Shown here: one piece after another, positions 2,988-4,250 of the stretch | Layout of the letters: each line of letters starts with the position of its first letter | How positions within the stretch are numbered: the stretch's first letter is position 1 | The notes under the pieces: generated by a model | Seen by the model: the letters and a program-made list of their open reading frames with translations, nothing else | The model's database searches: none | Told to the model about the DNA's origin: nothing | NCBI RefSeq assembly: GCF_000613305.1 | Contig: NZ_BAIO01000093.1 | Location: 1 to 7,238 of the forward strand | Reading direction: 5' to 3' | DNA length: 7,238 nt | Source of the DNA: Komagataeibacter kakiaceti JCM 25156 | GTDB taxonomy: Bacteria > Pseudomonadota > Alphaproteobacteria > Acetobacterales > Acetobacteraceae | Position numbers and translations under genes: made by a program

Positions 2988-4250
2988 TTACAGAACTCTG
3001 GTAACATTGGAGGGCTGGTTCCGCTTGCGTTGGTCGTTGAGCATGCCCAGATGCTTGAACTTTATCTGGATAGCCTGTTTCGATACCTCGAAATGGCTCG
3101 ATAGATACGCAAGTAATCGATCATATATCGTATAATTGCAAGGTTGGTCGTCGACGAATATGTAACCATGTCCCCTATCCCTGATTTCGAGAAAATTGCG
3201 GAATTGCGCAGTCTTAAACTTGAAGGAATCATCGGGCAGGATGAGGTTGGATGAGAACAAGTTCGCCTGATATTCAAGCCGCTCCAGGTTAAAACTGGCA
3301 TCCATCTCCTTGTTTATCAAAAGATCGCGTTCAATGATATTTTCGGAACTGAGGTAATGGTGATGTTTCAAGGAAAAATGACCTATTTCATGACCGATCG
3401 TAAAGCGTTCACGGCTCCTGTTCCCGTGGGAGTTGATAGAGATCACTTTCTGATGGAAGTGTGCAGAGCCCAGAATTGGCATTCCATCCGTGTCGTGGAC
3501 CTCCTGATCGGAATATTGAAGATCTATAGATAGCGCGGAGCAGATATGTTCCAAATCTACCGGCCCACCCCGGTAATCGACGAGCTTCAGGACTTCTCGG
3601 ACAGAACTCTTTATGGCCTCCGGAGGCATGAAGGGAATGGTCGTCGGGCTCTCATCGACGTCTCCTGCGAGTTCCGGGTGGAGGCTACCCAGGAACTGGC
3701 TGATGCTGCTGAAAAACTTTCCATCATTATAGGCAGAGAACTTCAGGGATTTTGTCACCGACCCTCCCTGAAAAAGCTGAAATTCCACAAAACGGTTTTC
3801 GATGTACGGTCGCGCCTTCCGATCCGCGATGATGTCGAGGCCGTCTCCGTCGTATTTTATGATACCAAGCCCCTTGTTCCGCGCGACCTTTTCGGCTCCG
3901 GATTGCAGCCGCGAAGACACAACCATCACGCCTTTTGCTGTATGGGGGAACATTCGCCCGAGTTTCGCTGAGAAGTCGTTTACGTACAGCTCAGGAACAC
4001 TGCCACTGTAATTTTTGCATTCGAAAATGACATAGAGATGAGGCGAAGTGCGCCCGTTGGCGCAGAGTTCCAGTACGACATCGAACTCGACATTCGCCTC
4101 GCGCTCTTTACAGTAGTATTCCTTCTTTTTGAAAATCTTGCAGTTGTCGGGAGGATAAGCTCCCAGCACCAATTCTCCCCGATCCTTCTGATCAAGGAGA
4201 TACTGATGGAATGCATCTTCGAGCTTATTGCCCTTATCCGAGGAACTCAT
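2988..4250 (-). CDS. PD-(D/E)xK (Mrr-like) nuclease fused to ImmA/IrrE metallopeptidase
   Basis: A 420-residue two-domain protein. Residues about 5-145 form a restriction-endonuclease-like fold: Glu11 in NKLEDAF, Asp57 in VEFDVVLE and Glu77-x-Lys79 in VIFECKNY give the PD-(D/E)xK active site, followed by an AKGVMVVSSRLQSGAEKVA helix-strand unit typical of Mrr-type domains. A linker of about 70 residues leads to an ImmA/IrrE (peptidase M78-like) domain: RFTIGHEIGHFSLKH (HExxH at 287-291) and Glu326 in LEYQANLFSSNLILP as likely third zinc ligand. All active-site residues are present in both domains. The ATG at 4250 is preferred over the TTG at 4331: it follows AAGG at 7 bases' spacing and removes 27 residues that match neither domain. 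There is no signal peptide, so it is cytoplasmic. GC is clearly lower than in the flanking genes, suggesting transfer. ImmA/IrrE peptidases usually cleave a repressor; no XRE repressor is adjacent. A defence or DNA-damage-linked role is inferred; the domain calls are solid. Confidence 0.85.
   Translation of the reverse strand: MSSSDKGNKLEDAFHQYLLDQKDRGELVLGAYPPDNCKIFKKKEYYCKEREANVEFDVVLELCANGRTSPHLYVIFECKNYSGSVPELYVNDFSAKLGRMFPHTAKGVMVVSSRLQSGAEKVARNKGLGIIKYDGDGLDIIADRKARPYIENRFVEFQLFQGGSVTKSLKFSAYNDGKFFSSISQFLGSLHPELAGDVDESPTTIPFMPPEAIKSSVREVLKLVDYRGGPVDLEHICSALSIDLQYSDQEVHDTDGMPILGSAHFHQKVISINSHGNRSRERFTIGHEIGHFSLKHHHYLSSENIIERDLLINKEMDASFNLERLEYQANLFSSNLILPDDSFKFKTAQFRNFLEIRDRGHGYIFVDDQPCNYTIYDRLLAYLSSHFEVSKQAIQIKFKHLGMLNDQRKRNQPSNVTRVL

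What the first reader, a model, noticed from the sequence alone, without database searches (positions are those of the whole stretch)
2988..4250. Nuclease domain fused to an ImmA/IrrE metallopeptidase: candidate single-gene defence or damage-response switch
Seen: a PD-(D/E)xK site (Glu11, Asp57, Glu77-x-Lys79) and an HExxH site (287-291) with Glu326 in one 420-residue frame, both sites intact, in AT-rich DNA. Known: ImmA/IrrE peptidases act by cleaving a repressor or regulator, for example ImmA on ImmR, and Mrr-like nucleases restrict foreign DNA. Inference: in one chain, proteolysis could release or control the nuclease, by self-cleavage in the roughly 70-residue linker or by cleavage of a separate target, in response to phage or damage. 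There is no methyltransferase or XRE partner next door, so the target is open.
Basis: partly seen in the sequence, partly recalled or inferred. Interest (0 to 1): 0.75.

Follow-up and report, generated by a model that had tools for sequence, protein, structure and literature searches.

The report
Nuclease–protease fusion, likely phage defence
A single bacterial gene joins a DNA-cutting enzyme to a protease of a damage-sensing family; it turns up sporadically in distantly related bacteria and in a genomic spot where related strains carry other presumed anti-virus genes, so it is probably a one-gene defence system not yet described.

Summary
The minus-strand gene at 4250-2988 (420 aa) has both active sites intact. 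In 146 aligned sequences, D57, E77, K79, E288, H291 and E326 are unchanged in all 146, E11 in 145, H287 in 144. A confident model (pLDDT 85.7, pTM 0.84) gives an N-terminal PD-(D/E)xK domain resembling CRISPR nucleases Cdn1/Can2, then a CapP/PprI-like zinc peptidase and helix-turn-helix, without PprI's C-terminal GAF-like domain. The family is rare, scattered over phyla, carried by some prophages, and no partner gene recurs outside one shared Acinetobacter site. In Komagataeibacter-type genomes the gene fills a slot that elsewhere holds PDC-S06, PDC-S28 or an ABC-three-component system. Across family neighbourhoods the defence signal is only modest. Best reading: a self-contained anti-phage or anti-mobile-element nuclease controlled in cis by an ImmA/IrrE module, combining Can2-type and CapP/RosmerTA-type logic. 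No activity was measured; trigger and substrate are inferred or unknown. The ten literature searches listed no description of it.

The parts
2988..4250 (-). Nuclease-ImmA/IrrE peptidase fusion gene, 420 aa (stop 2988-2990)
   Evidence: dN/dS 0.215 against L001
3666..4250 (-). Residues 1-195: PD-(D/E)xK (Cdn1/Can2/Mrr-like) nuclease domain, including the hairpin and helix at 171-190
4218..4220 (-). Glu11 of the nuclease site
   Evidence: 145 of 146
4080..4082 (-). Asp57 of the nuclease site
   Evidence: 146 of 146
4014..4022 (-). Glu77-Cys-Lys79 (ExK) of the nuclease site
   Evidence: E77 and K79 146 of 146
3624..3665 (-). Residues 196-209: the actual inter-domain linker, poorly conserved
   Evidence: lowest internal conservation at 191-200, 1.06 bits; 201-210 1.85 bits; no secondary structure
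3186..3623 (-). Residues 210-355: M78 / ImmA-IrrE zinc peptidase domain
3378..3392 (-). HEIGH (287-291), zinc and catalytic motif
   Evidence: H287 144, E288 146, H291 146 of 146
3273..3275 (-). Glu326, likely third zinc ligand
   Evidence: 146 of 146
3135..3185 (-). Residues 356-372: family signature around RGHGYIFVDDQPCN
   Evidence: D367 146, Q369 143, N372 145 of 146; the [VILM][DE]xQxxN pattern is absent from 23 of 23 other M78 proteins that I picked from the loci
3045..3125 (-). Residues 376-402: helix-turn-helix segment as in PprI and CapP
   Evidence: helices 370-387 and 391-400; the stretch 205-420 aligns with PprI and CapP
4251..4353 (-). Upstream stretch shared with the K. melomenusus copy; presumed to hold the promoter
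   Evidence: blastn 3010-4353, 91.6% to L001; alignment. No consensus promoter was found on this strand
2793..4758 (.). Variable slot that holds the gene; other genomes carry other content here
   Evidence: matches to L221 and L231 end at 2792 and resume at 4759

Best explanation
A self-contained, horizontally moving defence gene. The N-terminal Cdn1/Can2/Mrr-type nuclease is the effector. The C-terminal CapP/PprI-like zinc peptidase plus HTH packs against it and serves as sensor and restraint, much as the ImmA-type protein is the antitoxin in RosmerTA, and switches the nuclease on when an infection or DNA-damage signal (plausibly ssDNA or DNA ends) arrives. Shown here by computation: both domains, both conserved active sites, no recurrent partner outside one shared Acinetobacter site, mobility, a slot shared with defence candidates, and prophage carriage. 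Inferred: catalysis, defence, packing and cis-restraint, the trigger. Unknown: what the peptidase cuts.
For: Both catalytic centres kept across Pseudomonadota, Bacteroidota and a WOR-3 MAG. Fold matches: Cdn1, VC1899, Can2, AF1548 and, lower, NucC and Card1 for the nuclease; CapP and PprI for the peptidase; PADLOC capP 1.2e-21. pTM 0.84 suggests a fixed relative placement of the domains. The slot in Komagataeibacter-type genomes: of 5 others whose left flank is 89% or more identical, G001 holds PDC-S06 and G812 the matching 725-aa ORF, G526 holds PDC-S28 plus a serine recombinase, G629 (partial flank only) an ABC-three-component set, and G801 a tyrosine recombinase before its contig ends. A relative of that PDC-S28 (42% identical) also lies near the family member in L091, and DRT2 lies directly upstream in L011. 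In T7-like prophages 2 of 9 close relatives carry the gene between exonuclease and head-tail adaptor; flanking proteins of the two carriers are mostly about 70-90% alike, while the two family members match in main stretches of about 53-57%. Sporadic occurrence: 11 of 394, 1 of 249, 4 of 149 genomes.
Against: Some copies stand among ordinary genes (for example L073), and most neighbours are not known defence genes: among 146 neighbours PADLOC at 1e-10 gave 45 families, many of them for the same few proteins, against 8 families in 144 control genes, where mad3/mad2/mad8 matched 5/4/3 proteins. I did not obtain a count of distinct hit proteins, and 17 of 20 neighbours scanned one by one had no PADLOC match at 1e-8. 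In three Acinetobacter loci (L073, L095, L096) the gene sits at one site next to the same TetR gene (75-81% identical), so a fixed local role there is not excluded. PDC-S families are themselves only candidates. No PADLOC model covers the nuclease half. The divergent relative G808 (67%, L233) shows ORFs that look like mobile-element genes by eye and no defence gene I recognised. Restraint in cis rests on a predicted model whose coordinates I could not inspect.
Confidence: 0.5

Rival explanations
1. [quoted passage not shown]
For: In PprI the GAF-like domain is needed for ssDNA activation (passages of PMC10904395) and this family lacks it; the HTH segment and peptidase are kept; M78 peptidases often pair with XRE repressors (passages of PMC2701414). 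A shared Acinetobacter site beside a TetR gene would also fit a regulatory role.
Against: All nuclease catalytic residues are as strictly kept as the peptidase's, more than DNA binding would need; no XRE family is among the 25 of 130 Pfam families shown for 146 neighbours (the other 105 were not shown); slot-mates are defence candidates.
Confidence: 0.2
2. Bifunctional effector: the nuclease attacks DNA (or RNA) and the peptidase cuts a phage or host protein, the two activities acting in parallel rather than one controlling the other.
For: Both sites nearly invariant; a phage-exclusion zincin, Lit, cuts a host protein (passage of PMC3506569).
Against: CapP and PprI relatives are regulatory, and RmrA is an antitoxin (passages of PMC10440598); pTM suggests coupling of the domains.
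Confidence: 0.15
3. Self-cleaving switch: the peptidase cuts its own linker and frees the nuclease.
For: Two enzymes in one chain; a linker exists.
Against: Residues 171-190 match as part of the nuclease fold; the remaining linker (about 196-209) varies and is poorly conserved, with no obvious recurrent motif.
Confidence: 0.08
4. Type IV-like restriction enzyme: the Mrr-type domain cuts modified foreign DNA and the C-terminal half is mainly a recognition domain with residual peptidase features.
For: Mrr_cat similarity (25 of 120 listed relatives); stand-alone gene.
Against: The peptidase site is kept in 144-146 of 146, which a mere recognition domain would not need; no PUA/EVE-type reader domain among the Pfam matches.
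Confidence: 0.07

Closest known systems
CapP (CapH/CapP regulators of CBASS; PDB 7t5t)
   Different: No CapH or CBASS genes alongside in the window; an N-terminal nuclease is added and the chain ends soon after the HTH.
PprI/IrrE of Deinococcus (3dte, 8sln)
   Different: PprI has a GAF-like domain needed for ssDNA activation and a DdrO target (PMC10904395 passages); here there is no room for that domain.
RosmerTA (RmrT/RmrA)
   Same: ImmA-type protease associated with a toxic effector in phage defence (PMC10440598 passages); weaker RmrA model matches, best 9.3e-10.
   Different: Two genes, often with a small N-terminal HTH on the protease; here effector and protease are one chain and the N-terminal domain is a nuclease.
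Cdn1/Can2/Card1 CRISPR ancillary nucleases
   Same: Closest nuclease fold (Cdn1 13.0, Can2 12.2, Card1 9.1); Can2 is an effector nuclease switched by a fused domain (PMC7969007 abstract).
   Different: The fused regulator is CARF binding cyclic oligoadenylate; here a peptidase-HTH takes that place, on the other side of the nuclease.
Mrr-type single-gene DNases, e.g. the beta-propeller-Mrr fusion of the E. coli functional selection
   Same: Defence protein with an N-terminal Mrr-type nuclease fused to another domain (PMC9519451 passages).
   Different: The partner domain there is a beta-propeller. The ImmA/IrrE peptidase reported there is most likely the Xre-peptidase fusion of PD-lambda-2 (my inference from two passages).

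Membership tests
M78 / ImmA-IrrE metallopeptidases (PF06114) | Profile match above the curated cut-off | tested here: met
   53.1 bits against 22
M78 / ImmA-IrrE metallopeptidases (PF06114) | HExxH plus downstream acidic zinc ligand | tested here: met
   E288, H291, E326 146 of 146; H287 144 of 146
PD-(D/E)xK / Mrr nucleases | Fold with catalytic E-D-ExK | tested here: met
Pfam Mrr_cat PF04471 | Score above the gathering cut-off for this protein | tested here: not met
   15.8 against 21; 25 of 120 listed relatives carry it
CapP of CBASS | CapH repressor and CBASS genes next door | tested here: not met
   Pfam on ten other window ORFs: GST, TetR, GNAT, dehydrogenase, lysozyme, YbaK-type domain, four without match
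[quoted passage not shown]
   About 18 residues follow the HTH; PprI layout
PprI/IrrE | Cleaves a DdrO-type repressor after ssDNA binding | not testable with these tools
   Needs biochemistry
RosmerTA | Separate toxin gene next to an ImmA-domain antitoxin | tested here: not met
   No gene recurs beside it across unrelated loci; effector fused in the same chain
Can2/Card1 | Fused CARF domain | tested here: not met
   The other half is M78-HTH
Anti-phage defence system | Protects cells against phage | not testable with these tools
   Only slot, prophage and neighbour evidence

The most novel reading that the evidence does not exclude
A one-protein toxin-antitoxin-like immune switch: a Cdn1/Can2-type nuclease held silent in the same chain by a CapP/PprI-like peptidase that senses damaged or single-stranded DNA directly, so that detection, proteolytic control and killing sit in one polypeptide without second messenger, repressor or partner gene.
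Probability: 0.3. Interest if true: 0.8.

Novelty: new variant of a known kind. Interest (0 to 1): 0.6.

Why it matters
ImmA/IrrE proteases are common around defence genes, but whether they act as sensors, switches, antitoxins or effectors is unsettled. A family in which the protease and a Can2-like nuclease are permanently joined, with no other component in sight, makes that testable in one gene: two point mutants separate the roles. If it defends, it would be a compact defence family for which PADLOC-DB 2.0.0 showed no full-length model (one member scanned), present in plant-associated and marine genera and in Acinetobacter baylyi.

Tried and rejected
Rejected: a two-gene module. All-against-all comparison of 196 neighbours from 26 loci and of the 146 neighbours later scanned found recurrence in near-duplicate or same-site loci (L002/L003, L071/L073, L092/L098, and the Acinetobacter loci L073/L095/L096, which share a TetR gene, a small 92-aa gene and a 163-aa gene annotated as flavin reductase in L073), a piece of the gene itself (L010/L016), one loose group at different positions (L005/L018/L022) and scattered pairs, the strongest 39% over 152 residues (L010/L020); nothing that recurs next to the gene across unrelated genera. 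Rejected: tie to one housekeeping operon; neighbours differ between genera. Rejected as partner: the small ORF 4338-4598, no PADLOC or Pfam match, and all but about 16 bases of it lie outside the segment shared with L001. Insertion by a simple transposon: no long flanking direct repeat in 2700-4900, only 11-17-base imperfect pairs, none at the two slot ends (one search had stopped short of the right end); this does not exclude a short duplication. Led nowhere: promoter and terminator scan (2 promoter-like sites, both on the other strand, no terminator); viral fold library (IrrE-like proteins, restriction nucleases and unnamed entries, none named as such a fusion); PDB by sequence (only CapP and IrrE/PprI); own genome not held.

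Literature: ten answered full-text searches listed no paper that by title or start of abstract describes this fusion. I read passages only of PMC10904395, PMC2701414, PMC8649781, PMC9519451, PMC10440598, PMC3506569, PMC11514479 and PMC7159879; outline and abstract of PMC7969007; PMC12653410 was searched for IrrE and had none. Subscription papers and preprints are mostly not held, so a description in print elsewhere is possible.

Limits of the neighbour test: 33 loci were used (L003 and L071 dropped as near-duplicates); 360 neighbours within six genes, 150 nearest chosen, 146 scanned after I left out two pieces of the gene itself and two other ORFs; control 144 of 150 drawn from 209 ORFs in 14 regions of 14 of the same genomes, at positions I picked by hand. 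The Pfam and PADLOC tallies show only the first 25 families (of 130 and 45). ORF calling was my own script, not a published caller. The prophage slot test looked at 14 of the 17 loci returned.

Full report
What is there. The window is Komagataeibacter-type DNA: bases 1-2792 are 91% identical to a contig of K. melomenusus (L221, genome G001, the genome of L001) and bases 4761-5699 are 91.8% identical to a K. saccharivorans plasmid. Between them, on the minus strand, lies a 420-codon gene, 4250 to 2988. It has GC 0.488 against 0.615 and 0.577 for the flanks. Similarity to the copy in K. melomenusus (L001, on another contig) covers only 3010-4353, that is the gene but for its last few codons plus about 100 bases upstream, so the moving unit is essentially one gene. 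The last residues of this copy differ from relatives because the similarity stops there; that tail is not conserved (0.9 bits).

The linker. In the better model, strands 171-175 and 178-180 and helix 183-190 fall inside the nuclease match, which runs to residues 188-195 in the Cdn1, VC1899, Can2 and NucC rows, against about 139-149 in the poorer model; the Card1 and NucS rows still stop at about 136. What is left is about residues 196-209. The stretch 191-200 is the least conserved inside the protein (1.06 bits). A specific self-cleavage site there is therefore unlikely, though not excluded.

What is missing and what is added, compared with PprI. PprI is peptidase, HTH and GAF-like domain, and the GAF-like domain is needed for ssDNA binding and activation; CapP cleavage of CapH is likewise activated by ssDNA (passages of PMC10904395). 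This family ends about 18 residues after the HTH. Instead it has the nuclease and a signature between peptidase and HTH (around RGHGYIFVDDQPCN; the [VILM][DE]xQxxN pattern was absent in 23 of 23 other M78 proteins that I picked from the loci).

Context. No gene recurs beside it across unrelated loci. The exception within one genus: three Acinetobacter loci (L073, L095, L096) have it at one site, convergent with the same TetR gene (75-81% identical) and with a small 92-aa gene and a flavin-reductase-type gene nearby. Upstream gaps of about 50 to 500 bases are common by my ORF calls, as for a gene with its own promoter. Occurrence is sporadic: 11 of 394 genomes of G002's family (Rhizobium herbae; two of the 11 only partial), 1 of 249 of G001's family (L001's own genome) and 4 of 149 of G003's genus (Acinetobacter) at E<=1e-40. 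Of 80 viral loci returned, six match over nearly the full length, L114-L119 (L115 falls into two frames by my ORF script). In T7-like prophages the gene sits between exonuclease and head-tail adaptor; 2 of 9 close relatives and 0 of 5 distant ones examined carry it. Flanking phage proteins of the two carriers are mostly about 70-90% alike while the two family members match in main stretches of about 53-57%, as expected of separately acquired or fast-changing cargo.

The Komagataeibacter slot. The left flank match to L221 ends at 2792 and the right one resumes at 4759. At this place G001 holds a 725-aa AAA ATPase, PADLOC PDC-S06 at 8.5e-294, and G812 the matching 725-aa ORF between the same flanks. 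G526, whose flank match ends at 2686, holds PDC-S28 (E=0) with an unassigned 428-aa protein and a serine recombinase. G629, matching only 2145-2666, is followed by three ORFs, of which two have best plasmid matches (43-45% identical) among proteins annotated as ABC-three-component or DUF3732; the third was not searched. G801 shows a tyrosine recombinase before its contig ends. A more distant genome, G808 (67%), shows ORFs that look like mobile-element genes by eye and no defence gene I recognised. PDC means 'phage defence candidate' (passage of PMC11514479); these are candidates, not proven systems. A 42%-identical relative of that PDC-S28 lies near the family member in L091, DRT2 directly precedes the one in L011, a type III methyltransferase gene lies upstream in L023 and PDC-S73 in L072.

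Counter-evidence. Overall enrichment is modest: 45 PADLOC families among 146 neighbours against 8 among 144 controls at 1e-10, but many families hit the same protein (22 for one methyltransferase and 27 for the DRT2 protein at 1e-8), and the control has its own generic hits. Of 20 neighbours scanned one by one, 3 had a PADLOC match at 1e-8. In the annotated Acinetobacter copy the gene stands among ordinary chromosomal genes.

Mechanism. The near-invariance of two active sites over this distance says that both reactions matter. Can2 is a DNase and RNase activated by a ligand of its fused domain (abstract of PMC7969007); in RosmerTA an ImmA-type protease is the antitoxin of various toxins (passages of PMC10440598); CapP and PprI respond to ssDNA. 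Joining these, the likeliest reading is a nuclease effector restrained and switched in cis by its peptidase-HTH half. This is inference: no activity, trigger or substrate has been shown. The rivals (regulatory protease with a DNA-binding pseudo-effector; two parallel effectors; self-cleavage; type IV-like restriction) are listed with the results that would refute them.

Novelty. Each half is known, and protease-linked and Mrr-fused defence genes are known, but the ten searches listed under Tried and rejected showed no report of this joined family, and no PADLOC-DB 2.0.0 model matched the nuclease half of the one member scanned. I file it as a new variant of a known kind.

Noticed in passing
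window 600-1155 (+): The TetR regulator is 150 aa here but 184-187 aa in L222 and L232; its remaining part appears as a separate ORF at 967-1155, so this copy looks frameshifted.
   Followed up: partly
window 5460-6092 (-): Lysozyme-like protein (Phage_lysozyme 2.4e-15) beside the slot, overlapping the block shared with a K. saccharivorans plasmid.
   Followed up: no
window 4338-4598 (+): An 86-aa ORF in the most AT-rich stretch (GC 0.403 at 4361-4760), with no PADLOC or Pfam match; may not be a gene.
   Followed up: partly
L071:3584-3919, 11610-11900; L096:9673-9960, 11130-11462; L095:4010-4201: At the shared Acinetobacter site a small 92-aa gene occurs in more than one copy, and large ORFs (2328 aa in L071, 1283 aa in L095) lie between or beside the copies: possibly another variable slot. 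The six plasmid relatives of the 1283-aa protein that were listed are annotated as hypothetical.
   Followed up: partly
L222:4854-6137 (-): 428-aa protein with no PADLOC or Pfam match next to PDC-S28 in the same slot; its C-terminal half recalls HEPN/Abi-like proteins by eye (recalled, not tested).
   Followed up: partly
L166:5998-6738 (+): In a viral contig the same kind of nuclease domain (Mrr_cat 4.9e-9) is joined to a different C-terminal part, so the nuclease is a reusable module.
   Followed up: partly
L198:5246-5881 (-): One T7-like prophage relative carries an ORF with no PADLOC or Pfam match, possibly a membrane protein by eye, in the same cargo slot.
   Followed up: partly
L073 and L071: A contig filed as an Acinetobacter phage and a 4.1-Mb record filed as a plasmid carry the family member; L073 shows ordinary chromosomal genes around it, so both labels look wrong.
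   Followed up: partly
P0031: The Brucella member (cluster on 425 contigs) is named 'Beta and gamma crystallin' in UniRef, evidently a misannotation.
   Followed up: no
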